Source: a virus
IMG/VR virus record: IMGVR_UViG_3300037071_005032
Span: 1-46,016 of that record
Reading direction: 5' to 3' (one strand)
DNA: 46,016 bases
The position numbers were made by a program, and so were the translations under genes. How positions within the stretch are numbered: position 1 is the stretch's first letter; each line of letters begins with the position of its first letter. The notes below the pieces were generated by a model that ran no database searches, was not told the DNA's origin, and saw only the letters and a program-made list of their open reading frames with translations. Of the stretch, positions 4,944-44,147 are shown piece by piece.

Positions 4944-5130
4944 CGACGTACTCGCCCACGCCTGCGGGAACGGCATAGAGGGGCTCCAAGCACTTCGAGC
5001 AGCGGTAGTAGCGGTTGAGGTCGTCTTCGACGTAGACGCGCTCGGGAACGTGCGCGTGGTCGTTGAGCGCTCGTTCGTAGTCCTCGGCCGTCTCGACCGG
5101 AACCTCGTCCTCATACGGGTTTGCACTCAC
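4936..5130 (-). CDS. Small hypothetical protein with CxxC
   Basis: 64 residues from GTG 5130, overlapping the MerR-like gene stop (GTGA). Acidic N-terminal half, then YYRCSKCLEPLYAVP, which has one CxxC pair typical of small zinc ribbons, though only one pair is present. Function unknown. Confidence 0.55.
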   Translation of the reverse strand: MSANPYEDEVPVETAEDYERALNDHAHVPERVYVEDDLNRYYRCSKCLEPLYAVPAGVGEYVDA

Positions 5131-5420
5131 GATGCCTCCTCGAGGTCTGGGTGGGATAGCTCGATCAGCAGGTTCAGCACCGTCAGGCGTGGGTCGCCGT
5201 CGCGACGGATGCGCTCGAGCGAGACGCCGGCGTCGACGAGACGCTTGATGACGCGGATCGTCTGAACGTCCGGGAGTGACCACCTGCGAGGGTCCCCGCT
5301 GCCGGACGTGGCGCGGATCGACGGCGAGATGAGGTCGCTGTTGGCCCAGTGGTCGAGTTGCCTGAAGCTCACGCCGGTCAGGCGACAGACCTCATCCGAG
5401 GAGTAGGCGGTCTCAGTCAC
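5127..5420 (-). CDS. MerR-family helix-turn-helix protein
   Basis: 97 residues from GTG 5420, overlapping the HNH stop (GTGA). Residues about 7-75 form a MerR-like winged helix: YSSDEVCRLTGVSFRQLDHWANSDLI, then PRRWSLPDVQTIRVIKRLVDAGVSLERIR. This fits a DNA-binding regulator or an excisionase-like protein. It lacks an effector domain. It lies near the start of the leftward operon, two genes from the XRE repressor. Confidence 0.75.
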   Translation of the reverse strand: MTETAYSSDEVCRLTGVSFRQLDHWANSDLISPSIRATSGSGDPRRWSLPDVQTIRVIKRLVDAGVSLERIRRDGDPRLTVLNLLIELSHPDLEEAS

Positions 5421-5818
5421 GAGGCCTGCCTTGCTCGCTGATAGCGAAGAGCGGCGGCGCGGTTGCAGGCTCGACAACAACGTCGCGTCTGTGTGCGCTC
5501 ACGAAGGACATAGGTGTTTGCTTCGTCGTATGGGTGACCCTTTGGACAGTGGGTCTTGCGAGCGTTCACAGCGGGGAAGCCCTCGCCGCGTAGGGTGTTC
5601 TCACGGCGAGTAACGGGTTCGAGATGATGAACGTTCACGCAGGCCCGGTTTCGGCATAGATGGTCTAGTTCCAGGCCATCTGGGATCGGGCCAACCTGCT
5701 CTAAGTAGGCGACTCTGTGGGCTAAGGCTCCTGAACGGCCGTTCCACCAGCGCTTGCCATAGCCGTCCTTGCTCCGGGTTCCGGTCCATTCGACACACGG
5801 CGTTGTCAAGTCGAGCAT
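5417..5818 (-). CDS. HNH endonuclease
   Basis: 133 residues, ATG 5818, directly after the repressor stop. It has the typical HNH_3 layout of phage homing enzymes: CVEWTGTRSKDGYG, then AHRVAYLEQVGPIPDGLELDHLC (catalytic LDHLC), NRACVNVHHLEPVTRRENTLRG, and a C-terminal zinc ribbon (CPKGHPYDEANT, then CCRACNR). All expected His and Cys positions are present, so it looks intact. It is unlike the second HNH gene at 1324-1677, which has a degenerate core. It probably inserted between the repressor and the rest of the operon. Confidence 0.85.
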   Translation of the reverse strand: MLDLTTPCVEWTGTRSKDGYGKRWWNGRSGALAHRVAYLEQVGPIPDGLELDHLCRNRACVNVHHLEPVTRRENTLRGEGFPAVNARKTHCPKGHPYDEANTYVLRERTQTRRCCRACNRAAALRYQRARQAS

Positions 5819-6040
5819 CTAGGACGCCTGCTCCTCGTCGAACAGGTCGTCGATCCCAACGCCCAGAGCGCCGGCCAGGCGGTAGAGCGTTCGGAGCCGA
5901 GGACGAGGGGCCAGACCCTTCTCGAGTCGCCGGATGGTCTCCGGAGCGAGGTTCGCCTTGGCCGCGAGCTCCGGGATCGTGAGATCCGAGGCGGCGCGAA
6001 GGTGCTCGAGGCGGCTGCGTGTGGTGCTGGATTCCGGCAT
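5819..6040 (-). CDS. XRE (Cro/CI)-family transcriptional repressor
   Basis: 73 residues, ATG 6040. A single helix-turn-helix domain: LEHLRAASDLTIPELAAKA, then LAPETIRRLEKGLAPRPRL and LYRLAGALGVGIDDLF. It is divergent from another XRE protein at 6161, the usual arrangement of a lysis-lysogeny switch. A 15-bp palindrome 13 bp upstream of its start lies within its own predicted promoter, which suggests autoregulation. First gene of the leftward operon. Whether it acts as the main immunity repressor is inference. Confidence 0.75.
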   Translation of the reverse strand: MPESSTTRSRLEHLRAASDLTIPELAAKANLAPETIRRLEKGLAPRPRLRTLYRLAGALGVGIDDLFDEEQAS

Positions 6041-6160
6041 CAGGGCTGGAAGGTATCAGTCTGATACGGTTCTGGCAAGCATTTGGGCTGAAAACTTGCG
6101 CTGAGGCTGGAAAATGGGGTACAAGGGCGTAGGCCATTCGACCCCGGGGGAGGAACTCAC
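6041..6160. promoter_or_regulatory. Divergent control region between two XRE genes
   Basis: A 120-bp gap between divergent regulators. Leftward promoter candidate: TTGCCA (6078-6073) and TACCTT (6055-6050), 17 bp apart, which would start transcription only a few bases before ATG 6040 (near-leaderless). Rightward candidate: TTGCGC (6096-6101) and TACAAG (6120-6125), 18 bp apart. The rightward gene has a GAGGAA ribosome site. The palindrome at 6053-6067 lies between the leftward -35 and -10. Confidence 0.5.
6053..6067. promoter_or_regulatory. Perfect palindromic operator candidate
   Basis: GTATCAGTCTGATAC is a perfect inverted repeat with 7-bp arms and one central base. It overlaps the predicted leftward promoter, so a bound repressor would shut off its own operon. 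I found no second full copy in the window. Confidence 0.55.
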
Positions 6161-6472
6161 ATGGCTCTGAACATGATCGACCGAGCAGAGTTGGGGATGC
6201 GTCTTCGGATGCTGCGGTTCAGGTGCGGCGATCCGGCCGCAGCGACGGTCGCCGAGATGACCGGCGGTAAGGTGAGCGAAAGCTCGATCCTTCGGTGGGA
6301 GCAGGCGAAGAACGGCAGCTCACACGAAGGGCTTGCTATCCTCTGCGCGGTTTATGGGCGCCTGTTGAATGAGGTCTTCACCGTCCCGCTCGAGGTGACG
6401 GTCACCGACCTGCTCAACCCCCATTACGACACGCGGGTGTGGTTCAATGCCCTCCAACACGCGGCCGCGTAG
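6161..6472 (+). CDS. XRE-family helix-turn-helix regulator (Cro-like position)
   Basis: 103 residues, ATG 6161 with GAGGAA 6 bases upstream. Residues about 10-75 resemble an XRE domain: LGMRLRMLRFRCGDPAAATVA, then VSESSILRWEQAKNGSSHEGLAILCAVYG. It is transcribed away from the repressor and runs directly into the integrase, whose start lies 26 bp inside its 3' end. It could be a Cro-like protein or an integrase regulator. Confidence 0.65.
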   Translation: MALNMIDRAELGMRLRMLRFRCGDPAAATVAEMTGGKVSESSILRWEQAKNGSSHEGLAILCAVYGRLLNEVFTVPLEVTVTDLLNPHYDTRVWFNALQHAAA

Positions 6473-7388
6473 TCATCTCGCACTAGTACAGCCGTCGTAT
6501 GGCCCCGCGATCGTCTCCGATGCAAAACTTCCGAACGTCGCGCCCGCCGGCGTCGGGATCATGGACTTCCCCACGGCGCTCCGTCTGTTCCACGCGAGCC
6601 TCGAGCTCGCCGGTCACGCCGCGCGTACCCGCCAGCACTACGCCTACGAACTCACCGGGTTCTGGATCTGGTGCGCGCTTCAGGCTCCCCCGGTCGACGA
6701 TCTATTCGGGGTCACGTCCGCCACCATCTCGGCATACGTAACCTCGTTCGATCCCCACGGCTCCAAGCGCGGCGATGCGCTGCGTGCGATCAAGGCGTTC
6801 TGTCGCTGGTCCGTCGACGAGGGCTATCGCTCGGCAGATCCGTCAGCACTCATGCGAACCCCTCGCCCGCGCGTCAACCGTCAGGCGCCCGACATCCCCG
6901 CCGGCCACCTGGTGCGGATGCTCCGTTCGGCCTTCCACCGGGAACCTCGGCGAGGGTGGAACCTGCTGCTGCTGTACTCCACGGGCTCGCGGATCGGTGC
7001 CTACTGCGCCGTGCGTCCGTCCGACGTCGACCTCGAGCGCGGCCTGATCTACTTCTCGACGACGAAGAACGACCGCCCGTATGAGCTCGGGCTCGCGCAC
7101 AAGCAGCTCGTGGCCGCCCGTCATGTCGTCGGCTTCGGGCACGATCCTATCCCCGGCGTGGGTTCCGCGCAGCTCCGTAACTGGCTGCACGACGCGGAGC
7201 AAGACGCTGGGCTGCCGCGGATGTGGCCGCACCTGCTGCGCCACGCGTTCTCGCACCGCGTGGCCGCGAACTGCGGCGGTGACCCGGAGCTGTGGCGCAT
7301 CGCCATGAACCACGCGGACCTGTCTCAGTGGTCGACGTACAACACGCGCACGCTCGACGCCGTGACACACGTGATCGAGGCGGTGTAG
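6447..7388 (+). CDS. int: Tyrosine-family integrase (full length)
   Basis: 313 residues. The first ATG (6447) overlaps the previous gene by 26 bp; an internal ATG at 6561 is possible. Residues about 40-135 are the core-binding domain (FHASLELAGHAARTRQHYAYELTGFWIW). The catalytic domain carries Arg182 (TGSRIGAY), Lys207 (TTKNDRP), His262 and Arg265 (HLLRHAF), His289 (MNHADLSQ) and Tyr298 (STYNTR), so all six active-site positions are present. It should integrate the phage at an attB site; I could not identify attP. A second, shorter recombinase lies downstream on the other strand. Confidence 0.88.
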   Translation: MPSNTRPRSHLALVQPSYGPAIVSDAKLPNVAPAGVGIMDFPTALRLFHASLELAGHAARTRQHYAYELTGFWIWCALQAPPVDDLFGVTSATISAYVTSFDPHGSKRGDALRAIKAFCRWSVDEGYRSADPSALMRTPRPRVNRQAPDIPAGHLVRMLRSAFHREPRRGWNLLLLYSTGSRIGAYCAVRPSDVDLERGLIYFSTTKNDRPYELGLAHKQLVAARHVVGFGHDPIPGVGSAQLRNWLHDAEQDAGLPRMWPHLLRHAFSHRVAANCGGDPELWRIAMNHADLSQWSTYNTRTLDAVTHVIEAV

Positions 7389-7397
7389 CGTCGACGT

Positions 7398-7553
7398 GTG
7401 GAGTGGTCCGGCTGGCGTCTAGCGGTGCTGAACGTTGTAAGCGTGGCGCTGATGCTCGCCGTTGGCCTCGTGGGCGTCTGGGTCGGGATCTGGCTGATCC
7501 TGTTCATCGGAGACCACGCTTTCGACTACGGCAAGGTCTGTCAGCTCTGCTAG
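7398..7553 (+). CDS. Possible 51-residue membrane protein downstream of the integrase
   Basis: An open frame from GTG 7398, 9 bases after the integrase stop. Residues about 7-37 are strongly hydrophobic (RLAVLNVVSVALMLAVGL, then WVGIWLILFIG), followed by a short tail with two Cys. Codon third positions are GC-rich like real genes here. It overlaps the leftward frame at 7419-7670, so at most one of the two is likely to be a full gene. Confidence 0.4.
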   Translation: MEWSGWRLAVLNVVSVALMLAVGLVGVWVGIWLILFIGDHAFDYGKVCQLC

Positions 7554-7670
7554 ACAGCGATCGTAGAGCTCCTGATAGCTCACACGCTCGAGGTCCGGTC
7601 GCATCGGCATGATCGGCGTGCGCGGTACCCAGTTCGGTAGGAACGATCCTCGCATCCCTGGATCTGTCAT
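7419..7670 (-). CDS. Small hypothetical protein coupled to the minimal recombinase
   Basis: 83 residues from ATG 7670, overlapping the recombinase stop (ATGA) and preceded by GGAGGAG about 10 bases upstream. The N-terminal 55 residues look protein-like (RPDLERVSYQELYDRCLAEL). The C-terminal part (DQPDPDPDAHE) is antisense to the membrane frame at 7398-7553 and has weaker codon bias. Could be an excision or accessory factor; no family recognised. Confidence 0.45.
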   Translation of the reverse strand: MTDPGMRGSFLPNWVPRTPIMPMRPDLERVSYQELYDRCLAELTDLAVVESVVSDEQDQPDPDPDAHEANGEHQRHAYNVQHR

Positions 7671-8248
7671 CGTTGTCGTCTCCTCCATCGGGCACGTCGC
7701 GCGTTCGCCTGTAGCCTCAAGGTTTTCGAGGCTCCCCAATACAACCGTGTCGTCGTCGTCGACGAGTGGCCGGCCATCTCCGCCACGATCTCGATCGGCG
7801 TGCCTGATTCGACCCATTGAGTTACCGCAGAATGACGGAAACGATGGGCGTGCGCGTGCACACCTGCCTTCTTCCCTAGCTCAGCGATGACGTAGCGTAG
7901 CCCACGATCTGACCAACCGATGAGGTGACCGTTGTGCGCGTGGGATCGCATCACTTCGGAGGCCCGTAAGGCCGTCGGCGTCAGGATCACCGTTCGTTCC
8001 TTCGAGCCTTTGCCGATGATCCGGATGAGGTGCGAGTGTCGTGGACATCCCGCGCGCCGGCACCACCACGGCACCGTCGGCCATTCCCTGACCTCGGCTG
8101 AAGTGATGGAGCAGGCTTCCGCTGCCCGTAGACCTGTTTCGTTGAGGAACTGGCACGTAGCCCAGACCTCCGGTCGGGGTCTCGCCGCCAGTTCGAGTGC
8201 GCGCATCTCAGCCGGCGTGAACGGGACCGGAAGCCGTCGAGTGCTCAA
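7667..8248 (-). CDS. Minimal tyrosine recombinase (catalytic domain only)
   Basis: 193 residues from TTG 8248, overlapping the upstream HTH gene stop (TTGA). The whole protein is a catalytic domain: Arg41 (ETGLRAAEACS), Lys83 (GKGSKERTV), His135 and Arg138 (HRFRHS), His161 (MAGHSS) and Tyr170 (TTTTRLYW). The N-terminal core-binding domain of normal integrases is absent. Between Arg41 and Lys83 is an unusual insertion with Cys63, Cys68, His71 and His73, a possible zinc site. The C-terminus is very basic (RRARWRRRQR). The HTH protein encoded upstream may supply DNA binding. Possible roles are excision, resolution or a DNA switch. Confidence 0.8.
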   Translation of the reverse strand: MSTRRLPVPFTPAEMRALELAARPRPEVWATCQFLNETGLRAAEACSITSAEVREWPTVPWWCRRAGCPRHSHLIRIIGKGSKERTVILTPTALRASEVMRSHAHNGHLIGWSDRGLRYVIAELGKKAGVHAHAHRFRHSAVTQWVESGTPIEIVAEMAGHSSTTTTRLYWGASKTLRLQANARRARWRRRQR

Positions 8249-8463
8249 TCGAGGTCACCCCAGGACTTGCGTCGAGCGTGGAGCACCTGTTTCGTGACAC
8301 CGAGCTCCCGAGCGATAGCGGCCTCGGTGACGTCGTCCGCGATCGCGGCTCGCACCGCAGCGCGTTCTTCGGCGCCCAGCGCCTTCTTGCGGTCCTTCAC
8401 ACGGCGCAGGCGTCCACGGTGCGGGGCCGGCACGGTCGAGGGCTTGCGAGGCACGCGAGACAT
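8245..8463 (-). CDS. Small helix-turn-helix protein upstream of the minimal recombinase
   Basis: 72 residues if started at ATG 8463 (MSRVPRKPS); the open frame extends to 8526. A basic N-terminus (HRGRLRRVKDRKKAL) is followed by a helix-turn-helix (AAVRAAIADDVTEAAIARELGVTKQVLHARRKSW). Its stop overlaps the recombinase start, so the two are co-translated. It may guide the recombinase, which lacks its own core-binding domain, or act as a local repressor at the nearby inverted repeat. Confidence 0.65.
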   Translation of the reverse strand: MSRVPRKPSTVPAPHRGRLRRVKDRKKALGAEERAAVRAAIADDVTEAAIARELGVTKQVLHARRKSWGDLD

Positions 8464-8496
8464 CGTATCCGTTCCCATGCCCTGATGGTCGCATAC

Positions 8497-8528
8497 CTTT
8501 GACTTCTCACGCAAGAACAACGTCAAAG
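8497..8528. promoter_or_regulatory. Inverted repeat upstream of the HTH-recombinase pair
   Basis: CTTTGAC (8497-8503) and GTCAAAG (8522-8528) are perfect 7-bp arms 18 bp apart, 34 bp upstream of the leftward HTH gene. The right arm supplies a TTGAC element on the minus strand. Candidate operator or recombinase-binding site. Confidence 0.4.
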
Positions 8529-8545
8529 AAATACGACCTTATCGC

Positions 8546-8592
8546 TTGACTCCTGACACCCTCCCGCCGATGATGCGTACAAGAAGTTGTAC
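8546..8592 (+). promoter_or_regulatory. Rightward promoter with palindrome at the start site
   Basis: TTGACT (8546-8551), 17 bp, then GATGAT (8569-8574) form a fair sigma-70-type promoter. The inverted repeat GTACAAGAAGTTGTAC (8577-8592) sits at the predicted start, as an operator would. It precedes the gene at 8616, which has a GGAGGAAGG ribosome site. Confidence 0.5.
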
Positions 8593-8615
8593 CCACCGAC
8601 CGGAAGGAGGAAGGG

Positions 8616-8786
8616 ATGACGGTCACGCTGATCTACAGCAACGGCCGCACCAAGGAGGTCGGGTTCCGCGAGCGTTCCGACGCGCGCCGGGGCCTCCCCT
8701 CCCCGTACTTCCAGCAGGGCTACCGCGACCAGTTCGGCATCGTTGCCGTGTTCGTGGGGACCCCAGACGACAGGGAGGCAGCATGA
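8616..8786 (+). CDS. Small hypothetical protein (56 aa)
   Basis: 56 residues, ATG 8616 with GGAGGAAGG just upstream. Sequence has a beta-hairpin start (TVTLIYSNGRTKEVGF) and a globular middle (SPYFQQGYRDQFGIVAVFVG). Its stop overlaps the next start (ATGA). Family not recognised. Confidence 0.65.
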   Translation: MTVTLIYSNGRTKEVGFRERSDARRGLPSPYFQQGYRDQFGIVAVFVGTPDDREAA

Positions 8787-8986
8787 AGCGCACCACGGTC
8801 AGAAGGATCGCCCTCGCCGCGATCGCAGCCTCGGCTTTCACCGCCGGCGTCGCCCACGCGCAAGGATCGCATCCGAACCGGATCGTGGTCCGCTGGTGTC
8901 CTGAGGATGCCGTGCAGTGGGGCGTCGGAGACTTCGACGGCACCAGGTGGGAGCGGTACCACTGCATCGCCCGCGACGACCTGTAG
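8783..8986 (+). CDS. Small secreted protein with signal peptide
   Basis: 67 residues from ATG 8783, overlapping the previous stop (ATGA). Residues 1-26 are a clear signal peptide: basic MKRTTVRR, hydrophobic core, and AHA before a likely cut at Gln27. The 41-residue mature part has two Cys (RWCPED, then YHCIARDDL) that could form one disulfide bond. A strong terminator follows. It lies in the lysogeny region, so expression in lysogens is plausible. Confidence 0.65.
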   Translation: MKRTTVRRIALAAIAASAFTAGVAHAQGSHPNRIVVRWCPEDAVQWGVGDFDGTRWERYHCIARDDL

Positions 8987-9009
8987 TCCACCCAGTACCG
9001 GCATGAGGG

Positions 9010-9027
9010 CCCGCCCTTCGGGGCGGG
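9010..9027 (+). terminator. Rho-independent terminator
   Basis: CCCGCCC, loop TTCG, GGGCGGG, followed by TCTTCTGTTGTG. It ends the small rightward operon 8616-8986 and marks the left edge of the gene-poor region. Confidence 0.8.
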
Positions 9028-9097
9028 TCTTCTGTTGTGTCCACCGTGCATGGAGGGAGTGGACAGGGGTCAGGTGTTGCGTCGTAGTTGCGTCGTA

Positions 9098-9132
9098 TAC
9101 GTAGACCGTTAGGACTATGGTACGTAGACCGT
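9098..9132. repeat. Pair of 12-bp direct repeats
   Basis: TACGTAGACCGT occurs at 9098-9109 and 9121-9132, 23 bp apart, in a locally less GC-rich stretch with further TACGTA elements. About two helical turns separate the copies, so regulator or recombinase arm-type binding is possible. Confidence 0.5.
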
Positions 9133-9388
9133 ACTACGTAGCCTGTTGGCTGTATCCTGTATGACTCTGTCACTCAATGGCCCCATCCTCTGCTACCTAC
9201 TTCAACACTAAGCGGCAGGGCCATGGATCGTGGCCTTAACCCCCCCACACCTGCTCGATTGCCCCCGTATCCCCTGCTCAGAGCGCCGAACGCTGGGGCG
9301 GGAGAACGGGACCGGGGTGGACCCCACACCCCCACGTATAACACTCATAGGAGGCCGCCCACGTAGGCGTCACCCACAAGACCCGTTG

Positions 9389-9397
9389 TGCTACAAT
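9389..9397 (+). promoter_or_regulatory. Extended -10 promoter candidate
   Basis: TGCTACAAT is an extended -10 element (TGnTACAAT, five of six -10 bases matching). No convincing -35 is visible. Transcription would begin near 9404-9405, exactly where the first of several hairpins begins. Confidence 0.45.
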
Positions 9398-9423
9398 CCC
9401 TCTCGACCTACCCGGGTCAAACG

Positions 9424-9461
9424 GTGTCAGGGGCCTCGTCGTTCGGCGGGGCCTCAGACAC
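9424..9461 (+). ncRNA. Long stable hairpin (structured RNA element candidate)
   Basis: Stem 9424-9428/9457-9461 (GTGTC/GACAC), an A-A mismatch, then 11 further pairs from 9430/9455 to 9440/9445, closing a GTTC loop. Three of the pairs are G-U, so the structure is better as RNA than as DNA. No T-run follows, so it is probably not a terminator. It lies about 20 bases after the predicted start of transcription. Confidence 0.45.
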
Positions 9462-9929
9462 GTTCAGGCGCAGTTCCCCCGGGTCCTACCCCCGCTGTTC
9501 GCCGCGGTACGCGCTCTTTTCGAGATCCCATGGAAGTCGCTGCTGATAACGGTCGCATGGGAGGTTTCCCTCGGCTCTGACCCGGGTCCGCCGCAGGCAA
9601 CGACACCTTGCGCGCGCCGGAGACATCGGCTCTCTCCGGTGAGGACTACGCGTTGGATGCTCGAAGACGTGTCAAGGAGGAGCGGTGTCACAGGGCCTTG
9701 GTAGGGTGCGGTTGGTTCTGATGGACCGTGGGGTGTCCAGGTCGACTGAACCGGGACCGTCGGGGGATCGAGCCTCCGGCGGGCGAGTGGCTCGGGCTCT
9801 CGCACCGGAGGAAGAGGCCATACGGACGGCCGACGGTGCGGATGGCCACGGGGGAAGGGTTCCCCACTCGGTGCCATTGGTGGCGGGTGGAGGGGCCCTT
9901 TCCCTTGACCAGGGGCAGAACGTGTTCGC

Positions 9930-15006: not shown

Positions 15007-15396
15007 ATGCCGCGACCGGGAACCATCGAGCCGCGCGCCGGTGCTGATGCTCCGTTCGGTGCCACGGCAGCACTTCAGCGGATGGCCCAAGCCATCCCAG
15101 TCACGGCCGAACAGGCCGCGGCAGCACCGAACCAGCCGAAAGACGCGGCTCCCGACCCCGAGCTCGATCCGAACGTCGAGCTGAACGGCGGATACGACAA
15201 GGCGCTGTTCGGCGCGACCGCGCGGCCCGATGAGCCCGTGACGCACGGCGCTCCGTTCGGCGACGGGGCCAACTGGACGCCCAAGCCCAACGAGGACGAC
15301 TACACGTTCCTGCTCCGCGTCGCCGACGACCTCGACGCCTCTCCGCTCGCTCGTTCCCTGCAGACCTACACCGCGAAGATCCGTCGGGGGGTCTAA
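15007..15396 (+). CDS. Hypothetical virion-region protein
   Basis: 129 residues, ATG 15007. Ala/Pro-rich N-terminal half with two similar segments (GADAPFGATAALQ, then GAPFGDGANW) and a C-terminal helix (DDYTFLLRVADDLDASPLARSLQTYTAKIRRG). The stop overlaps the giant-protein start (TAATG). May be a partner or chaperone of the giant protein; that is inferred from position only. Confidence 0.6.
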   Translation: MPRPGTIEPRAGADAPFGATAALQRMAQAIPVTAEQAAAAPNQPKDAAPDPELDPNVELNGGYDKALFGATARPDEPVTHGAPFGDGANWTPKPNEDDYTFLLRVADDLDASPLARSLQTYTAKIRRGV

Positions 15397-18300
15397 TGCC
15401 CCAGCAGGCCGGGGGCACCGGTGGGGAGGAGTTCCCCCAACCGATCCCCACCGATACGATGCTCGACAACCGGCCGCCGCCGGTACGAAAGACCCCTGAG
15501 CAGCGACTCGCCCACATCGAGGATCTGTCGGGCGGAACGCTCCCGTCTTCCCTCGGACTGGCGCTCGCGCAGTCGAACATGGACGACCCCGGCATCGCGC
15601 GCGCATCGACGCTGCTCGCCCATCAGTTCGATCTTCCTCCGTCGTGGTTCTTCGACAAGTCACGGCCCGCGATCGTCGACTTCGCACGCGCGCGGCGTGA
15701 GGACTACACCGCGCCGGTGGCTTCCTTCCACGAACCCGGCGACCCGACGCGCGACCTCTCGTGGGCCACCGCGAAACGTATCGTGCGCCCGTTCGAACCG
15801 GCGGTCATCTCCTCGATCCTCGGCTCTAAGGGTTACGTCGAGGGTGACCCCAAGACCGCGCGACTCATCAAGGTCGTCGAGGCGATGGCCCCGATCGCTG
15901 GTGAGGACGTCGCGTTCACCAACGTCCTAGCCGCGGCGGAGCAGATAGCTTCCTCCCAGCTTGACCCCACGCTGTTCGCCTCCAACCTACGGGTCGCTGC
16001 GTCCTCGCCGTCGCTCCCGCCGCTCGCCTCGATCGCGCTCGCCCAAGAGGCGACCGAGCAGGGACTTGCGTTCCAGACTCTCGCCGATGTCGCGAAGCTC
16101 GCGATCCCCGACGTCGCTGAAGGCATCGACCAGGCAGCCGAGCTCCGTCGGCGACGCGATCAACTGACACCGGAGTACATCGCGGTGCACCCCGAACTCG
16201 CGGCGCCACAGCTCCCCGGAACCCCCGGATACGTCGAGCCCGGCCAACTCCTCAAGGCATCGCTCGGTGCTGGGGTCGTCGGCGCGTTCCAGCTCCCCGG
16301 CCGCCTCGCGGACATGATCCAGGAGCGCCAGATGGACTACGTCATCGCCGGCCAGGAGCTCGCGGCCCAGACGAAGATCCCGTTCTCGAACTCGATCGTC
16401 GGCAAGGCCGTCGGCAAGGTGCTGAACGTCATCAACCGTCCGCTCGGCGCGATCGTGCGCGTCGGGTTCACCCCGATCACATCCTTCACCGATAAGAACC
16501 CAGGGTTCGATACCGAGGGGTTCCGCGATGCGTGGGACATCCTCAAGGGAGCGACGAACGAGTTCACCGAGCTCGAGGAGGCCGGGGTCCCGTGGTACAT
16601 GACCGCCGCGGTCGAACTCGCCATCTCGGTCGGGTTCGACGTGCCGGGAACGAACATCCACGTCCCCTCGCTCGATCCGCTCATCTTCATCGGCCAGATG
16701 CGCGCCTCGACGAACCTCGGCCGCACGGTCTTCGGTGTCGCCGAGAAAGGCCAGATCGACCGGTGGCCGTCCTTCGTCGAGAACTGGATCCGCGGTCCGG
16801 TCGGCAAGATCGGGGACATGCGCAATCTGTCGGTGTCGAAGTACCTGCTGCGCGAGGCCGACCGCGCGCGCAACCCCGAGATCGCGTTCACACGGGCTGT
16901 GGACAACTTCCGCACGACGTTCGGGACCGAGGGTATACACCCGATGGTCTCGGAGCGGATCTGGCGATGGGCGAACTCGACGCGCGGCAAGATCCCCGAG
17001 GAGATGCGCCTGCGCGGTGTTGAAGGCGTGCTGCTCGGCGGGCTCGGCGTAACGCCGGAGATCGGGTCGCTGTCCGAAGACGTCTCGCGTTACGTGCGCG
17101 CCGCGCGCGAGACGACGAGGGTCGAGCTTCCCCCCGCGATCGAGGCGATGGCGAGGTTCAACGCCAACCGCGGGCCGGTCGCCGTCGCCGAGGGGCTGGG
17201 CCACGATGCCGAGACCGCGCTCGGCGTGCTTTCTGACACGAGCCTGTCCCTCGTCAACCACGGTGCTCAGATGGTCGAGCTCCCCCGTCTCGCCGGTCCG
17301 GTGACGCGTCTGGAACACACGCTTCGGACCTCCGGCATGGCCGACACCGGAATGGGCCGTTGGGTGCGCCACGTCGTCGGGCTGGCACCCCGTCAGGTCG
17401 GGACGTCGCTCGTGCTGAACATCGAGGAGGCCGGTCAGGCCGAGCGCGACTTCCAGCGCTACCTCATCCGCTCGCGCCTGTACTCGCCGGAGGAGATCGC
17501 GAAGGGACGGCTCGAGTTCAACGCGGCCGTGCGCGCCGATAACCCGACGCGCGAGCTGAACTTCATGGACGTGATGCAGCGCTACGACAAGGACTCGATC
17601 TCACGCCTCGCCAAGTCCTACGGGATCGACCAGTCGTGGATGGACGACATCGTCGAGAAGCTCGACTCGAAGTTCGGCTCCCGGCGCAAGCAGGTCTTCG
17701 GTGTGGAGACGAAGACCGGGGCGACCGGTACGCTCGAGCCGCAGGAGGTCCGCGACCCGTTCATGGTGACCCAGCGGCCGAACGAGTGGACGCTTCACGA
17801 CCCGGTGAAGATGCGTGAGGGCATCGCGGAGACGATCGGCACGTGGCGCCAGTACCGCTCGGCCATCGCCAAGCACTTCCCTGCCGGGGTTCCCGGAGCC
17901 AAGCCCGTGCACATCCCGCTCCGCCGGTTCACCGACGACATGGGCGACCTGCTCGTTCGCGATCTGTTCATGTCGTGGTGGAAGCCGCTCGTCGTGGCCC
18001 GGCCCGCCTATGTCCTTCGCGTCGCCGGGCTCGAGGAGCAATCGCGTTTCATCGCCACGGTCGGACTGACCCGGCGTCTCGAATCCGGTCCGCACGGCGC
18101 GCGTGTGCTGTCACGGCTTGACGCGTTCCGTTCGGAGGCGCGCGGTGGCGGGTTCGCCGACATCCCGGTCGAGGGACTGACCGAGCCCCTGCGGTTCCCT
18201 CGACCGGGGATGCTCCCCAACGAGCCGCTCGCGAACAACGTCGCGTCCCGCTATGCGCTCGCCTCCGAGGAGGGTCCGGCGCGGCGGATGTTGCAGTCGA

Positions 18301-21300
18301 TGATGCCGGGCAAGTGGGGCGTCGTCGAGCCGAGCGACCCCCACTTCTACGACTGGTGGTTCAACGGGCTCGCGCATCAGTTCGGGCTCGATCCGCTCGG
18401 CCGGCGCTACCTCGACGACGTCGCGCGCGGGCTCGGCGAGCAGGAGTCCGCCGACGCCGCGATGCGCTGGCTGCTCGACGGCAAGGGCGAGGGTCCCCGC
18501 TACGTGCAGCGCCTCATGGGCCAACCGCTCGGCGAGGTTTCCATCGAGGCGATACGCGGCCAGGTCGAGCGCGGCGTTCGCATCGCTCGCGACCTCACGC
18601 GGGGGAACAAGAACATCGCGACGGCCGCGCGCGATGGGCTGCTCCGTCTCGAAGACCTCAAGCTCATCCCGAAGAAAGACCTTCCGCCGTTCGTCGCGGG
18701 TCCGCTCGCGCACGAACAGGTGCTCGCGAAGGTCGGGCCCGGCAAACGCGCGCTCGACGCGTGGACGCGCTGGATCCTCGAGGAGCCGACGAACCGTCTC
18801 TCCCGCCAGCCCTACTTCAAGTCGTGGTACGACCGCGTTTACCACGCGCTCGTGACCGAAGCGCAGGCGTCCGGGCAGGAACTCACGCCGGAGCTCATCA
18901 AGGGGTTTCAGCAGACGGCCAAGCGCTTCGGCGTGACGCAGGTGCGTCGCATCATGTTCGACCTCTCGCGTCAGGGACGGATCGACGAGATGACGTCGGG
19001 CCTCCTCGTGTTCGTCCAGCCCTACCTCGAGTGGCCGGTCGCCTGGTCCCGCATCATCCGTCAGAACCCCGCGGTCGTGGGCTACGTCACGCGACTGGGG
19101 CGTCTCGCGACGGAGTCGGGGTTCGTCCGCAAGGACCCGGACACCGGTGAGATGGTCGTCCCGCTGTCGTGGTGGGCCGGCGCCGCCCCGTTGCTGGCGG
19201 CCCTCACCGGCGGGCATATGTCCCCGGCGTTCAAGGGCGGCGGCTGGGAGCTGTCGGTCCCGCTGACCTCGTTCAACATGTTCGCGTCCTCGACGTTCGG
19301 CATCCCCACAGGCGGGCTCGCGGGCGACCTGCCGATCCCGCTGCCGAACTTCAACCCGGAGGCACTCGGTATCATCCAGCAGCTCGTCGCCCACGACGCG
19401 CTCGTCCCCGGCGACCTGAGTGCATCGCTCAAGGCGAAGCTGTCGTCGTGGCTGTTCGCCTACGGCGAGGTCTCCCCGGCCAACCCCGCGGCGCTATTGC
19501 CGGCGTACCTTCGCCACGGGCTCATGGCCGCGATGGGCGAGACGTGGTTCAAGAAGGAGACGGACCTGCAGGCGACGAACTTCCTGCAGGTGCAGCAGGC
19601 GATGGGCCTCGAGCCGAACGCCGACCATGCCACCGCTCAGGCGCGCGAGTACGCGGGGCTCAGAGCGTTCTTCGCGTTCGTGTTCCCCGGCGCTCCTCGC
19701 ATCGAGTTCCCGACCGTCGAGATCGAGCGCGAGTGGTCCGACATGGTCGAGACCTCGCCGTCGTACTCCGACGCGATCACGGCTTGGGGCGTCAAGCACC
19801 CGGACCTGTCGCTCATCCCGCTCGCGCGCACGATGTGGGCCGCCGACAATCCCTCCCCGGTGCCGATCTCGCCGAACGCGTTCGTCGGCCAACTCCTCGA
19901 GACCAAGGGCGCTGAGCAGTTCGCGAAGGACCATCCGCGCTGGGTCTGGGCGATCATCCCGCACGAGTTGCAGGAGGGCGAGCTCGACTTCGGATCGTGG
20001 TTCGCCCAGCTCGCCTCGGGCCAGCGCGAGGTGCTATCCCCGGAGCGGTTCCTCGGTGAGGATCAGATCCAGAAGGGTTGGGACGCCTATTTCATGGAGC
20101 GCGATGCGTGGCTCGCGTGGCAGGAGGCGCATCCCCAGATCGGTATCGGCGATCCGTCGTATGAGCAGAAGTCCAACGAGTACCAGCTCGCGATCGAAGA
20201 CCTCCGCGAGACGAACCCGGACTGGGGCGTCATCTCCGGCAACATCGACATCTCCGGCGTCGACCCGAACGTCATGGCGGAATCGCGTTCACTCGCGCGC
20301 GACAAGACGTTCACCAAGACCGACGTCGGCAAGGGCCTCGTCGCCTACCTCGCGCTCCGCGACAGCATCTCCGACGATCTTGCGGCCCACGGCGCCTCGT
20401 CGATCCAGACGGTGCTCGCTGAACGCCTCGGTCTGGCGAGCGAGTTCACCGACGGTGTGGCCGACATCGTGGACCAGTACCCGGACTTCAACACCGCCTA
20501 CCGCCTGTTCTTCGCCTCGGACCTGCAACACGTGGAGACGGCCGGGGACAAGGCACTCGCGGGTGTTCCCCAAGACGTCTACGACGACAAGATCACGCCC
20601 TGGTGGGATCGGTACGAGCGGCTGAAGGACAAGCCGAACCTCGCGGGCAACGTGAACGACCGCAACGCCGCATACGAGGGGATCCGGATGTTCGTCGAGC
20701 GGGCCTACGAGGAGTTCCCGCGTTCCCAGAACCCGATGATCCTTCGCTGGAAGACCTATGACGATTCCGAGCGCCAGGACTACCTCGTGTCGATGATCGG
20801 TCGATCCTACGGGTTCAACTCGCGGTTCGACCGGGTCGAGCTGCTCGGCGACAAGAGCTCGAAGGCGGCCGAGAAGTTCTGGACCGACTACAACACCGCG
20901 CGCACCGCGATCTCGAACCAGGACGACCACGACCCGAACTTCGCCGCCGGCGACGCCTACACCGCGCTCGACCGCTGGGTGCTCGGGCAGGCGGCGAAGA
21001 ACCCCATCATCCGCAACCAGCTCGAGGCGTCGAACACGTGGGGGTACGCGTTCCGCAAGGTGCTCCCCGAGATGTTCCCCCAGCGGCGCCGATCCCAACC
21101 GTACTGGGACGCGTTCCTTGACTCGGTTGCGACGGTTCAGCAGGTGGTCATCGCGAAGGAGTTGCATGGCGACGCTTCGTTCGACCCCAACGAGAAGGTT
21201 CTGTACACGCGGCTGAAGGAAGTGTTGGAGGGGTACGTGGGCACGTTGCGTGAGGAGAACCTTCAGTTCCGCGAACAGTGGCGCTTCCTCGAGGACGCTT

Positions 21301-21386
21301 CCGGTCCTGACCCATTGCTCGACTACTTCATGCCCGCGGTGTTCTTCGCTACAGGCAGCGACCAGTTGAACAAGATCGGTTCCTGA
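15396..21386 (+). CDS. Giant (1996-aa) putative internal virion / ejection protein
   Basis: 1996 residues, the largest gene here (13% of the genome), ATG 15396. Mostly alpha-helical with no signal peptide. Residues about 1130-1330 resemble regions of large polyvalent or inner-core virion proteins: NRLSRQPYFKSWYDRVYHAL, then RRIMFDLSRQGRID, LLVFVQPYLEWPVAWSRII and the hydrophobic WWAGAAPLLAALTGGHM. A glycine-rich hydrophobic stretch (about 1290-1350) might enter membranes. No polymerase, peptidase or lysozyme motif was found by eye. Lying between portal and scaffold, it is most likely packaged in the head and ejected with DNA. The exact function is unknown. Confidence 0.6.
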   Translation: MPQQAGGTGGEEFPQPIPTDTMLDNRPPPVRKTPEQRLAHIEDLSGGTLPSSLGLALAQSNMDDPGIARASTLLAHQFDLPPSWFFDKSRPAIVDFARARREDYTAPVASFHEPGDPTRDLSWATAKRIVRPFEPAVISSILGSKGYVEGDPKTARLIKVVEAMAPIAGEDVAFTNVLAAAEQIASSQLDPTLFASNLRVAASSPSLPPLASIALAQEATEQGLAFQTLADVAKLAIPDVAEGIDQAAELRRRRDQLTPEYIAVHPELAAPQLPGTPGYVEPGQLLKASLGAGVVGAFQLPGRLADMIQERQMDYVIAGQELAAQTKIPFSNSIVGKAVGKVLNVINRPLGAIVRVGFTPITSFTDKNPGFDTEGFRDAWDILKGATNEFTELEEAGVPWYMTAAVELAISVGFDVPGTNIHVPSLDPLIFIGQMRASTNLGRTVFGVAEKGQIDRWPSFVENWIRGPVGKIGDMRNLSVSKYLLREADRARNPEIAFTRAVDNFRTTFGTEGIHPMVSERIWRWANSTRGKIPEEMRLRGVEGVLLGGLGVTPEIGSLSEDVSRYVRAARETTRVELPPAIEAMARFNANRGPVAVAEGLGHDAETALGVLSDTSLSLVNHGAQMVELPRLAGPVTRLEHTLRTSGMADTGMGRWVRHVVGLAPRQVGTSLVLNIEEAGQAERDFQRYLIRSRLYSPEEIAKGRLEFNAAVRADNPTRELNFMDVMQRYDKDSISRLAKSYGIDQSWMDDIVEKLDSKFGSRRKQVFGVETKTGATGTLEPQEVRDPFMVTQRPNEWTLHDPVKMREGIAETIGTWRQYRSAIAKHFPAGVPGAKPVHIPLRRFTDDMGDLLVRDLFMSWWKPLVVARPAYVLRVAGLEEQSRFIATVGLTRRLESGPHGARVLSRLDAFRSEARGGGFADIPVEGLTEPLRFPRPGMLPNEPLANNVASRYALASEEGPARRMLQSMMPGKWGVVEPSDPHFYDWWFNGLAHQFGLDPLGRRYLDDVARGLGEQESADAAMRWLLDGKGEGPRYVQRLMGQPLGEVSIEAIRGQVERGVRIARDLTRGNKNIATAARDGLLRLEDLKLIPKKDLPPFVAGPLAHEQVLAKVGPGKRALDAWTRWILEEPTNRLSRQPYFKSWYDRVYHALVTEAQASGQELTPELIKGFQQTAKRFGVTQVRRIMFDLSRQGRIDEMTSGLLVFVQPYLEWPVAWSRIIRQNPAVVGYVTRLGRLATESGFVRKDPDTGEMVVPLSWWAGAAPLLAALTGGHMSPAFKGGGWELSVPLTSFNMFASSTFGIPTGGLAGDLPIPLPNFNPEALGIIQQLVAHDALVPGDLSASLKAKLSSWLFAYGEVSPANPAALLPAYLRHGLMAAMGETWFKKETDLQATNFLQVQQAMGLEPNADHATAQAREYAGLRAFFAFVFPGAPRIEFPTVEIEREWSDMVETSPSYSDAITAWGVKHPDLSLIPLARTMWAADNPSPVPISPNAFVGQLLETKGAEQFAKDHPRWVWAIIPHELQEGELDFGSWFAQLASGQREVLSPERFLGEDQIQKGWDAYFMERDAWLAWQEAHPQIGIGDPSYEQKSNEYQLAIEDLRETNPDWGVISGNIDISGVDPNVMAESRSLARDKTFTKTDVGKGLVAYLALRDSISDDLAAHGASSIQTVLAERLGLASEFTDGVADIVDQYPDFNTAYRLFFASDLQHVETAGDKALAGVPQDVYDDKITPWWDRYERLKDKPNLAGNVNDRNAAYEGIRMFVERAYEEFPRSQNPMILRWKTYDDSERQDYLVSMIGRSYGFNSRFDRVELLGDKSSKAAEKFWTDYNTARTAISNQDDHDPNFAAGDAYTALDRWVLGQAAKNPIIRNQLEASNTWGYAFRKVLPEMFPQRRRSQPYWDAFLDSVATVQQVVIAKELHGDASFDPNEKVLYTRLKEVLEGYVGTLREENLQFREQWRFLEDASGPDPLLDYFMPAVFFATGSDQLNKIGS

Positions 21387-25694: not shown

Positions 25695-27197
25695 ATGGCC
25701 GCACCCACGATGTACAACGAGGCCGATGCCCCCTTCGGGGAACTTGCTGAGTTCGACGCGCTCGACTGGCGGATGCGCGACGACGTCTTCATCGGAAACG
25801 CGTGTTTCACCGGTTGCGTCGTCTCGGCTCAAGGCACTCCCGACGGTACCGTCTCCGTCTCGGCGGGAACAGCGCGGATCAACACCTCGGACGTGACATG
25901 CGCCGGTGGCACCGTCTCGGTCCTGACGGGCTCGGCGAACCCGGACGGTTCGACGGCATCGGCCCCACACGCGACCCTGCAGCGATACGACCTGATCGTG
26001 TTGAACTCGGCCGGCACGCTCGGTGTCATCCACGGCGCCGTGACAGTCCCGACGTTCCAGAACCATCAGGTCGTGAAGCCGAAGTATCCGGCGTGGTCGG
26101 GGTCCCAGATCGTGCTCGCGGTGATTTACGTCCTTCCTTCTTCGGAAGCCAACGCCGGGAAGATCTCGATCGGAGCTCCGGGGTCGGACCATTCCGAACT
26201 CGTCCGCAAGACGCAGTTGATGAGCAAGTCGATGCTCTACGACGATCCGCACCTGATCTCCGGCAACCACCATACGGGCACCATCACCGACACGCAGCAC
26301 GGCATCCGCACGCTCGCGAGCGCCCACGCACTTTCGGATCTCTCGGGCACCCTTTCCATCGCTCAGGGGCTCGGCAAGCCGCAGGCGCTCACCGGAGCGA
26401 CCGCGACAGCGCTGTTCGCTGGCGGGGTGGCCTCGGGTGCTCCGGCTTCCGGTACCCACGTCGTCGGTGAGTTCGCGGTCGACCAGACAGGCAAGATGTG
26501 GATCTGCACCGGTGCCGGCACGCCGGGGACGTGGGGTCTGGTGGGTGGTACTGGTCTAGCTACCGATCCACTTGCTGATGCCAAAGGCGACACGTTCGTC
26601 GCGACGGCCGCCGACACGATCGTGCGTGTCCCCGTGGGGACGGACGGTCAGGTCCGGGTGGCGGATTCCTCAGCGACATCGGGGATGCGGTGGGAGTCCA
26701 AGAAGATAGCAGCCATCGTCGCGAATACAGCCGCCATCTCCACCACCGAAACCGCGGTGGCATCGGGGACGATCCCGGCGAACACGTTGGCGGTAGGGGA
26801 CACGTTCAAGATCAGGTGTCGCGCCGACGGTACGACGGGTGTGACCCCTGGCACAGCCACCCCGCGCATCAGATTCGGTCCGACCACACTCACCGGAGCG
26901 GTTCTCGCAGGGACGGCTGGCACCCTGGTCGCATCGCGAACAAATCAAGCGATGTGGCTAGAGGGCGAAGTCGTGGTGAGGACAATCGGACCGACGGGAA
27001 CGCTGACCGGGGTTTATATCGTCCATTCCCGCCCAAGCACGTCCGACATCTTTGCGGCGACGGGCAACCCGTTCACGGGAGGCATCCTCGATGTCGTGGT
27101 CGATACGACCATCGACAATCTCCTCCAGTTGACGCTTGTGACAACGCAAGCCGGGTCGTCGTTCATCGTCTATCTGGCCTCGATCGTGAAGCTCTAG
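25695..27197 (+). CDS. Tail fibre-like protein
   Basis: 500 residues, ATG 25695. An N-terminal attachment-like region (about 1-200) carries DHSELVRKTQLMSKSMLYDD and GNHHTGTITDTQHGIRTLAS, motifs typical of fibre shafts. A junction GEFAVDQTGKMWICTGAGTPGTW follows, then a C-terminal beta domain (about 320-500) ending QAGSSFIVYLASIVKL. The 'G.FA.D..G.mW.C...G.PGTW' pattern is common in tail appendages of Gram-positive phages. Probably contacts the host surface. Confidence 0.75.
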   Translation: MAAPTMYNEADAPFGELAEFDALDWRMRDDVFIGNACFTGCVVSAQGTPDGTVSVSAGTARINTSDVTCAGGTVSVLTGSANPDGSTASAPHATLQRYDLIVLNSAGTLGVIHGAVTVPTFQNHQVVKPKYPAWSGSQIVLAVIYVLPSSEANAGKISIGAPGSDHSELVRKTQLMSKSMLYDDPHLISGNHHTGTITDTQHGIRTLASAHALSDLSGTLSIAQGLGKPQALTGATATALFAGGVASGAPASGTHVVGEFAVDQTGKMWICTGAGTPGTWGLVGGTGLATDPLADAKGDTFVATAADTIVRVPVGTDGQVRVADSSATSGMRWESKKIAAIVANTAAISTTETAVASGTIPANTLAVGDTFKIRCRADGTTGVTPGTATPRIRFGPTTLTGAVLAGTAGTLVASRTNQAMWLEGEVVVRTIGPTGTLTGVYIVHSRPSTSDIFAATGNPFTGGILDVVVDTTIDNLLQLTLVTTQAGSSFIVYLASIVKL

Positions 27198-42690: not shown

Positions 42691-43044
42691 GTGACAGAGT
42701 TCGGAGCCATCCTCGCTGCACTCGGGGCGTTGGCGCTGACGGTCGAGAAGATCGTCTCGTTCGTCCGCAACGCTGCGGACCCGAACGGGAAGCTGCCGAC
42801 CTACCTGTGGAACGTATTGGCGATGGTCGTCGGCGTAGGGTTCGCGCTCGGTTGGCAGCTCAACCTCGTGCCGGCCATCCTCGCCATGATCCCAGCGCTC
42901 AAGGAGTCCTCAGCACTCACCGGAACCACGGGGCAGTTGCTCACCGGGTTAGGCATCGGCGGAGCAGCGGGCTTCGCCTACGGTGTCCTGCAAGCGCTCG
43001 AGGCGACCGTGCACCGCAACAGGGGACCGGTGCCACCGGCGTGA
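42691..43044 (+). CDS. Holin-like membrane protein
   Basis: 117 residues from GTG 42691, preceded by GAAGGGGGT. Three hydrophobic segments: FGAILAALGALALTVEKIV, LWNVLAMVVGVGFALGW and LLTGLGIGGAAGFAYGVLQ, with a short basic C-terminus. Size, topology and position after endolysin genes fit a holin. The start overlaps the end of a short upstream frame (42662-42694). Confidence 0.65.
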   Translation: MTEFGAILAALGALALTVEKIVSFVRNAADPNGKLPTYLWNVLAMVVGVGFALGWQLNLVPAILAMIPALKESSALTGTTGQLLTGLGIGGAAGFAYGVLQALEATVHRNRGPVPPA

Positions 43045-43148: not shown

Positions 43149-43511
43149 ATGGCGAACGAAGACCTCGAAGCATGGCGCCAATCATGGCGCGACCAGTGGG
43201 CGACATCGAACGACCTGCTGGCAGGGATACGTGACGCACAGGGAGGCATCATGACCGCACTAGACGACCTCAAGGTGGCGGTAGCAGACAACCAGACCGT
43301 CTCGGACAGGGTGGCGACGCTCGTCGACACGCTGCAGGACCAGGTAGGCACGCTCGAGGCGACCGTGGCGGACCTCGTGGCTCAGGGGAACGCGGACCTC
43401 GGCGAGGTCACGTCCCAGATCGCGGCCATCACGGCCGAGCTCACCGCGGCGGAGGCACCGAACACGCCGCCCGTGGAGGAGCCACCGGTCGAGCCGCCGA
43501 TGGAGATGTAA
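43149..43511 (+). CDS. Coiled-coil protein at the end of the late operon
   Basis: 120 residues from ATG 43149. An internal ATG at 43251 has a better ribosome site (GGGAGG 6 bases upstream) and would give 86 residues (MTALDDLKVAVADNQT), a common phage protein start. The body is one coiled coil (VSDRVATLVDTLQDQVGTLE); the C-terminus is Pro/Glu-rich. Last gene before the shared terminator. Confidence 0.6.
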   Translation: MANEDLEAWRQSWRDQWATSNDLLAGIRDAQGGIMTALDDLKVAVADNQTVSDRVATLVDTLQDQVGTLEATVADLVAQGNADLGEVTSQIAAITAELTAAEAPNTPPVEEPPVEPPMEM

Positions 43512-43729: not shown

Positions 43730-44145
43730 CCCTGCTCCTCGGTGGTCAATGCTTCGCGGGCGATGGACTTGACGGGGTTCACGGTGCTTGGCATCCCCCA
43801 TGCCGCTATCCGCTCCAACGCCTCTCGGTATCGGTCCCTCTCGGCCATCGCTCGCACGTACTCACGCGGGATGAACGTGCCCCGTTCGGCTATCAGTCGG
43901 TCACGTTCGGCCTTGGATTCTTCGTACCACCGCTCTGCCCTCTTGCGGTCCTCGATGACCACGTTCATGCCGTCCACCAAGTCGTTGACCTGACCGTTCA
44001 GTCGATCACGTTCGGCTACCAAGCGGTCGAGAGCGGCGAGAGCGTCCCGTATCACGACCTCACCGTTGAGGCCGTTGAACTCCAGCGCCGTGAAGATGTT
44101 GAGCGTTGACCGCACCGCCTCGATGTCGTCCTGTATGGGTTCCAT
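43726..44145 (-). CDS. Coiled-coil protein (139 aa)
   Basis: 139 residues from ATG 44145 (MEPIQDDIEAVRSTLN), overlapping the upstream stop (TGATG). Long helix with heptads (LAALDRLVAERDRLNGQVND, then RKRAERWYEESKAERDRLIA). Its first seven codons are part of a 23-bp sequence repeated at 44315-44337. Function unknown. Confidence 0.6.
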   Translation of the reverse strand: MEPIQDDIEAVRSTLNIFTALEFNGLNGEVVIRDALAALDRLVAERDRLNGQVNDLVDGMNVVIEDRKRAERWYEESKAERDRLIAERGTFIPREYVRAMAERDRYREALERIAAWGMPSTVNPVKSIAREALTTEEQG

Positions 44146-44147
44146 CA
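44125..44147. repeat. 23-bp direct repeat, copy 1
   Basis: Exact copy of 44315-44337, covering the start codon and first seven codons (MEPIQDD) of the coiled-coil gene plus the upstream stop. The two copies bracket a 51-codon gene. Confidence 0.9.

What the first reader, a model, noticed from the sequence alone, without database searches (positions are those of the whole stretch)
7667..8463. Minimal tyrosine recombinase with a Cys/His insertion, co-translated with an HTH protein
The 193-aa recombinase has a full RKHRHY active site but no core-binding domain, and carries C63-x4-C68-x2-H71-x-H73 between the first catalytic Arg and the Lys. An HTH protein overlaps its start. The phage also has a normal 313-aa integrase pointing at it. 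A two-part recombinase, with DNA binding on a separate small protein, is one reading; others are excision, dimer resolution or a DNA switch.
Basis: partly seen in the sequence, partly recalled or inferred. Interest (0 to 1): 0.6.

Follow-up and report, generated by a model that had tools for sequence, protein, structure and literature searches.

The report
Stripped-down recombinase with separate DNA-binding partner
A bacterial virus carries, besides its ordinary integrase, a second DNA-rearranging enzyme reduced to its catalytic half, encoded next to a small DNA-binding protein; the enzyme type is known, but this reduced form with an extra cysteine/histidine loop has no close relative that could be found.

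Summary
7667-8248(-) encodes a 193-aa tyrosine recombinase (P0001) with all six catalytic residues (R41, K80, H135, R138, H161, Y170) and no core-binding (CB) domain in any frame upstream. A 12-residue insert carries C63-x4-C68-x2-H71-x-H73. Its TTG start overlaps the stop of a 72-aa basic HTH protein (P0002). A CB-containing integrase (6447-7388+) faces it tail to tail. AlphaFold gives a confident Xer-like catalytic domain.

P0001 is a known superfamily in an unusual reduced form. Its nearest sequence relatives (Thermus plasmid recombinases, ~35% identity) keep the CB domain and lack the insert. Catalytic-only recombinases already exist in two Rhodococcus phages; a common clade with P0001 is rejected (p-AU 0.006), so the reduction happened more than once.

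The two-part-recombinase reading is possible but unsupported: none of 25 annotated relatives has an HTH gene overlapping the start, and a 52-bp inverted repeat (8487-8538) just upstream of the HTH gene looks like the operon's operator. Nothing points to a DNA switch. Most likely: an autoregulated accessory Xer-like recombinase, perhaps for genome resolution; function inferred. No close homologue was found, so the Cys/His motif and the HTH pairing cannot be tested by conservation.

The parts
7667..8248 (-). P0001, 193-aa catalytic-domain-only tyrosine recombinase; R41 K80 H135 R138 H161 Y170; insert with C63 C68 H71 H73; Arg-rich C-terminal tail (net +9 in the last 23 residues)
8245..8463 (-). 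P0002, 72-aa basic HTH protein (net charge +9), stop codon overlaps the recombinase start
   Evidence: HTH families E 0.03-0.1; phrog_686 E 6.1e-5; low-confidence helical model
8487..8538 (.). 52-bp inverted repeat, arms of 17 nt (14 of 17 complementary), 18-bp centre; upstream of the HTH gene; probable operator, less likely a recombination site
   Evidence: 5 of 2000 Markov copies of the intergenic stretch hold one as good; the half-site occurs nowhere else in the window
6447..7388 (+). P0003, 313-aa CB-containing tyrosine integrase, convergent with the recombinase
7419..7670 (-). possible third gene of the operon (83 aa), ATGA overlap with the recombinase stop and GGAGGAG upstream, but poor codon score and an antisense ORF on the other strand: doubtful

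Best explanation
The locus is a small autoregulated operon encoding an HTH regulator (P0002) and a catalytically complete, core-binding-less Xer-like tyrosine recombinase (P0001). P0001 descends from an ordinary CB+CAT recombinase of the Xer/plasmid-resolvase type that lost its N-terminal half. It probably still breaks and rejoins DNA by the usual Tyr170 covalent mechanism, holding DNA with the catalytic domain plus an Arg-rich C-terminal tail. The HTH protein most likely binds the 52-bp inverted repeat upstream of its own gene and controls the operon. The job is most likely accessory: resolution of genome multimers or another recombination during replication, while the convergent integrase (P0003) does lysogenic integration. 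Shown: sequence, active site, missing CB, gene overlap, predicted fold, inverted repeat. Inferred: activity, translational coupling, operator, job.
For: All six catalytic residues and an intact frame. AlphaFold pLDDT 88.6, pTM 0.83; best PDB match archaeal XerA, Foldseek E 9.6e-10, VIA Z 18.0 over 170 residues. Best NCBIfam scores are XerC/XerA/XerD models; best relatives by identity are Thermus/Deinococcus plasmid recombinases. No CB in any frame. Catalytic-domain-only proteins exist in Rhodococcus phages ReqiDocB7 (159 aa) and Perlina (160 aa). The authors of PMC4563357 (passages) and PMC13313380 (passages) suggest that recombinases of that wider phage group serve replication or other recombination rather than lysogeny. 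PMC8371274 (passages) reports weak in-vitro recombination by catalytic halves of SSV1/SSV2 integrases. The inverted repeat sits only upstream of the HTH gene.
Against: No close homologue, so no sign of purifying selection could be measured. Codon use is poorer than in most genes of the phage (GC3 0.69 against 0.84-0.89 in integrase, terminase and RecT), so recent arrival or decay is possible. No dif-like core (11-bp arms, 6-8 bp centre) was found near the genes. No partner or substrate is known.
Confidence: 0.5

Rival explanations
1. Two-part recombinase: P0002 supplies the DNA recognition that the lost core-binding domain once gave, and recruits P0001 to a site such as 8487-8538, where P0001 cuts within the 18-bp centre.
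For: TTGA overlap between the genes, CB truly absent, small basic HTH protein, a 52-bp inverted repeat beside the pair. In plasmid pYLC1, whose recombinase is P0001's nearest row in the tree (support 91/52, weak), an HTH gene overlaps the recombinase's 3' end.
Against: 0 of 25 annotated relatives have an HTH gene overlapping the start; the Rhodococcus phage catalytic-only proteins have no annotated HTH gene beside them (the ReqiDocB7 upstream neighbour has no Pfam match). An 18-bp centre is longer than the 6-8 bp overlap usual for this superfamily (recalled). The HTH match is as good to general regulators. The complex could not be modelled.
Confidence: 0.12
2. Decaying remnant: an acquired recombinase that lost its N-terminal half and is no longer used.
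For: Lacks the CB domain; GC3 and codon score differ from the rest of the phage; no relative found conserves this form.
Against: All catalytic residues intact, open frame, Shine-Dalgarno-like sequence and tidy TTGA overlap with an HTH gene of typical codon use, high-confidence compact fold; 12 extra residues were gained.
Confidence: 0.2
3. FimB/FimE-like DNA invertase that flips a segment of the phage genome.
For: Similar size; the NCBIfam tyrosine-type DNA invertase models are 200 and 198 positions long.
Against: Score 11.9 bits against a cut-off of 221. Exact inverted 16-mers in the genome: 4, chance 0-7 in 20 simulated genomes. The best candidate pair (26088-26109/29732-29753), when inverted in silico, gives a frame that stops 19 residues after the joint.
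Confidence: 0.06
4. Excision-specific or directionality partner of the integrase P0003, or an integrase-fold regulator such as SPbeta MrpR/YopR.
For: Convergent with int, as in Microcystis phage MinS1, where two tyrosine recombinases also face each other; MrpR/YopR/SroF structures match at Z 12-13.
Against: P0001 and P0003 are barely alike; P0001 keeps the whole active site; higher Z values go to active recombinases.
Confidence: 0.12

Closest known systems
Thermus/Deinococcus plasmid tyrosine recombinases (e.g. WP_014630459.1, pTTJL1801)
   Same: Best full-length sequence matches (about 35% identity from residue 4 of P0001), same catalytic motifs
   Different: About 310 aa with a CB domain; no 12-residue Cys/His insert; no HTH gene overlapping the start
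Rhodococcus phage ReqiDocB7 gp059 (ADD80845.1, 159 aa) and Perlina XAV38668.1 (160 aa)
   Same: Catalytic-domain-only tyrosine recombinases in actinophages
   Different: No insert, no annotated HTH partner; they nest among CB-containing Gordonia/Rhodococcus phage proteins; one clade with P0001 rejected, p-AU 0.006
FimB/FimE-type invertases (NCBIfam NF007370, NF007371)
   Same: About 200 residues; catalytic domain only (recalled; model lengths)
   Different: Score far below cut-off; no invertible segment found
XerA (5hxy, 4a8e) and other Xer recombinases
   Same: Catalytic fold, Z 18
   Different: CB domain lacking in P0001; scores far below the equivalog cut-offs
Actinophage repressor-integrase cassettes (Mycobacterium phage Charlie gp35-gp34)
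   Same: HTH gene immediately upstream of a recombinase, same direction
   Different: Charlie's integrase is 323 aa with an N-terminal domain; this phage has a separate repressor and integrase as well

Membership tests
Tyrosine recombinase superfamily (PF00589) | R-K-H-R-H-Y active site in order | tested here: met
   R41 K80 H135 R138 H161 Y170 invariant in 13-row alignment; PF00589 61 bits, cut-off 27.1
Tyrosine recombinase superfamily (PF00589) | Catalytic-domain fold | tested here: met
   Model pLDDT 88.6; XerA Z 18.0, lambda Int, Cre, HP1 Z 14-16
Tyrosine recombinase superfamily (PF00589) | Strand cleavage and rejoining | not testable with these tools
   needs biochemistry
Simple recombinases, CB+CAT (PMC8138268) | Core-binding domain | tested here: not met
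   No CB in any frame; PMC8138268 describes simple members as CB+CAT (passages)
XerC/XerD/XerA equivalogs | Score over NCBIfam cut-off | tested here: not met
   63.6 bits v 335 (XerC), 46.9 v 330 (XerD), 61.1 v 220 (XerA)
FimB/FimE invertases | Score over NCBIfam cut-off | tested here: not met
   11.9 bits v 221
FimB/FimE invertases | Inverted repeats bounding an invertible segment | tested here: inconclusive
   Inverted repeats at chance in this genome; short or diverged sites would be missed
Catalytic-only recombinases of ReqiDocB7/Perlina | Common ancestry of the reduced form | tested here: not met
   p-AU 0.006, 30 rows
Two-part recombinase (HTH + CAT) | HTH gene kept beside the recombinase start in relatives | tested here: not met
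   0 of 25 annotated relatives with overlap; no close relative exists to test
Two-part recombinase (HTH + CAT) | HTH protein directs the recombinase to its site | not testable with these tools
   needs complex modelling or biochemistry
Zinc-binding insert | Cys/His ligands conserved in relatives | tested here: inconclusive
   Motif in 0 of the 32 relatives whose alignment spans the loop; exact-spacing DNA pattern: 13 IMG/VR stretches, none in a recombinase; no close relatives to test

The most novel reading that the evidence does not exclude
P0001 and P0002 form a split tyrosine recombinase: target recognition moved to a separate HTH protein and a zinc-knuckle-like insert, so that the pair recombines at the inverted repeat 8487-8538 that also controls its own promoter, making recombination and expression of the recombinase one switch.
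Probability: 0.07. Interest if true: 0.75.

Novelty: new variant of a known kind. Interest (0 to 1): 0.36.

Why it matters
Described tyrosine recombinases mostly wrap DNA with two domains. Independent loss of the core-binding domain in actinophages suggests that the catalytic half is kept alone in nature more than once, and this locus, with an HTH gene overlapping the start, is a natural place to test whether DNA recognition can be handed to a second protein. If it were so, it would be a model for modular, retargetable tyrosine recombinases.

Tried and rejected
Relatives of P0001 in IMG/VR: scans with P0001, with alignment A4 and with residues 30-183 gave 2, 0 and 0 relatives; P0002 and P0003 gave none; the terminase gave none. 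The exact Cys/His-GKG DNA pattern gave 13 stretches, none in a recombinase; locus L019 happens to hold a recombinase in another place. P0002 has no match in the phage records, and the DNA 8245-8600 has only a 27-base chance-like match there. Deinococcota genomes: 44 of 111 have a match; some matches lie in short open frames (150-221 codons), which I did not follow up.

Upstream CB domain lost by frameshift: rejected. Programmed frameshift fusing HTH and recombinase: no slippery heptamer seen by eye at the junction; not computed. DNA inversion: not supported. dif/lox-like core: window count 48 against a simulated mean of 43.5, none within 5000-9000. tRNA and RNA families: none. The P0002 model (pTM 0.37, no alignment) was not used for fold searches. 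Actinobacterial genomes could not be reached with the genome search because no locus from one in the genome collection was at hand.

Literature: searches. I saw no title or abstract start in these listings about a tyrosine recombinase whose CB domain is replaced by an HTH partner; (five exact phrases) found 0 papers. Only passages were read, from PMC8138268, PMC8371274, PMC7096588, PMC4563357, PMC13313380 and PMC9703825.

Full report
What the record is. The window is a whole IMG/VR virus record of 46016 bases. It holds a perfect 126-nt direct repeat at its two ends (1-126 and 45890-46015), so it closes on itself and is probably a complete circularised genome. A terminase weakly like those of Streptomyces phages, a WhiB-like protein and a RecT-like protein point to a phage of Actinomycetota; the host is not known. 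Near the locus lie an HTH repressor (5819-6040-), a small ORF 6161-6472(+) and the integrase P0003 (6447-7388+).

The observation. P0001 (7667-8248-, 193 aa) has one Pfam match, PF00589, E 1.6e-16. The catalytic residues are R41, K80, H135, R138, H161 and Y170. Its open frame is 195 codons. P0002 (8245-8463-, 72 aa) ends in TGA that overlaps the TTG start of P0001; a GGGGTGA stretch lies about 8 nt upstream of the TTG. P0002 matches HTH families weakly (Pfam E 0.03-0.1; phrog_686 E 6.1e-5). P0003 has a CB-like N-terminal half (Xer models aligned from their positions 3-20 on) and is convergent.

No core-binding domain. Nine full-length recombinases were compared with 7000-9500: seven match P0001, and only from their catalytic half on (first aligned residue 103-147); Jumbo does not match significantly and the ninth is P0003 itself. 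No CB-like stretch was found in the three minus-strand frames of 8245-8700. Of 37 relatives in hand, 35 have at least 99 residues of open frame before the match; the two others (L043, L044) are matched only from residue 61 or cut by a contig end (these are stop-to-stop frames, not annotated proteins).

The insert. Against the Thermus proteins P0001 has 12 extra residues, VP|WWCRRAGCPRHS|H. Of the 37 relatives, 32 are aligned across this loop and none has the C-x4-C-x2-H-x-H motif. The DNA pattern with that spacing before GKG occurs in 13 IMG/VR stretches, none inside a recombinase. In the model the insert forms a short helix, 61-65, in blocks of mean pLDDT 76-82. Zinc binding is therefore a guess.

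Fold. AlphaFold2 with a 13-row alignment: mean pLDDT 88.6, pTM 0.83. Nearest solved structures: archaeal XerA (Foldseek E 9.6e-10; Z 18.0, rmsd 5.0, 170 residues), then lambda integrase, Tn1549 integrase, XerH and Cre (Z 14-16). Integrase-fold repressors of Bacillus phages (SroF, YopR, MrpR) come lower, Z 12-13. The C-terminal tail is Arg-rich (net +9 in the last 23 residues), unlike the tails of the Thermus proteins.

Relatives. Best plasmid matches are Thermus, 33-35% identity; best phage matches are about 27-31%. A tree of 32 catalytic domains puts P0001 beside the recombinase of Rhodococcus plasmid pYLC1 (support 91/52) and those of phages MinS1 and AbbyDaisy (93/83); these forks are not firm. 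With two long rows left out (P0003 and L049; 30 rows), P0001 forming one clade with the catalytic-only proteins of ReqiDocB7 and Perlina is rejected (p-AU 0.006), and P0001 with the Thermus/Deinococcus group is not rejected (p-AU 0.119). So the catalytic-only state probably arose at least twice.

Known catalytic-only proteins. ReqiDocB7 gp059 is 159 aa and its Perlina homologue 160 aa, 60.6% identical. Their annotated cousins in Camerico, Jumbo, Lalka27b, Trogglehumper, Mbo2, Gmala1 and GRU3 are 265-305 aa. The gene upstream in ReqiDocB7 has no Pfam match. PMC4563357 (passages) reports that no lysogens of GordTnk2, Gmala1 and GordDuk1 could be isolated and suggests a role in replication; PMC13313380 (passages) says the recombinases of lytic Rhodococcus phages such as Reynauld and Trogglehumper are probably not integrases. 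PMC8138268 (passages) sorts the family into CB+CAT and AB+CB+CAT and says CB and CAT are present in all. PMC8371274 (passages) notes weak in-vitro recombination by the catalytic halves of SSV1 and SSV2 integrases.

The HTH partner. In 25 annotated relatives (in L048 the match itself is not annotated as a gene on its strand) no HTH gene overlaps the recombinase start. Two have a DNA-binding gene next upstream in the same direction (Charlie gp35; GRU3 Orf18). In pYLC1 an HTH gene overlaps the recombinase's 3' end by 4 nt. In Thermus 4C and T. brockianus an HTH gene is divergent. HTH genes near recombinases are thus common, and the simplest reading is a regulator.

The inverted repeat. 8487-8538 has arms of 17 nt, 14 complementary, 18 bp apart: outer block GGTCG(C/T)AT, inner block CTTTGAC. 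Of 2000 Markov copies of the intergenic stretch 8464-8615, 5 held an equal or better one. Across the whole window such repeats are not rare (10 rows seen, 6.2 expected), so the signal rests on its place. The half-site is found only in these two arms. The repeat ends 24 bp before the HTH start at 8463 (9 bp before an in-frame ATG at 8478). A -35-like TTGACT at 8546(+) with a -10-like hexamer could serve the divergent gene at 8616. I read the repeat as an operator; a recombination site is not excluded.

Switch or resolution. Exact inverted 16-mers: 4 observed, 0-7 in 20 simulated genomes; direct ones exceed chance (39 against 0-6), which I put down to coding repeats. Dif-like cores: 48 observed, 43.5 (sd 7.7) simulated; none within 5000-9000. 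There is no evidence for an invertible segment, and nothing positive for resolution either, so the job assigned is inference from relatives and from the presence of a separate integrase. The Tyroviruses show that phages may carry several tyrosine recombinases with suggested plasmid-prophage roles (PMC9703825, passages).

Is it alive. GC3 is 0.69 and the synonymous codon score -0.06 bits per codon, against 0.84-0.89 and about +0.2 for integrase, terminase and RecT; the HTH gene scores +0.19 and the HNH gene is as poor as the recombinase. This suggests a gene acquired from elsewhere. The complete active site and compact model argue against long decay.

Verdict. A confirmed, unusual but explicable locus: a new variant of a known enzyme type. 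The two-part reading stays open at about 0.12 and would need biochemistry.

Noticed in passing
1-126 and 45890-46015: Perfect 126-nt direct repeat at the two ends: the record closes on itself (complete genome or assembler overlap).
   Followed up: no
8577-8592: Palindrome GTACAA-N4-TTGTAC, one copy in the window, upstream of the divergent gene at 8616; looks like another operator.
   Followed up: partly
44125-44147 and 44315-44337: Exact 23-nt direct repeat, 190 bp apart, which in both places encodes MEPIQDD on the minus strand.
   Followed up: no
42995-43011, 43351-43367, 44397-44421: 17-nt exact direct repeat CGCTCGAGGCGACCGTG and a similar inverted copy within 1.4 kb; may be chance in GC-rich coding sequence.
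   Followed up: partly
26088-26109 and 29732-29753: Inverted repeat of 22 nt (95% complementary) in two genes 3.6 kb apart; inversion in silico gives an early stop.
   Followed up: yes
7398-7553: 51-aa plus-strand ORF like a small membrane protein, codon score good, antisense to the doubtful third gene of the operon 7419-7670(-).
   Followed up: partly
5417-5818: HNH endonuclease gene with GC3 0.63, as low as the recombinase and unlike its neighbours: another likely newcomer.
   Followed up: no
15396-21386: A single 1996-aa ORF; function not examined.
   Followed up: no
L005 1608-2552 and 3299-4480: Microcystis phage MinS1 also has two tyrosine recombinase genes facing each other, with a DUF3263 gene between.
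   Followed up: no
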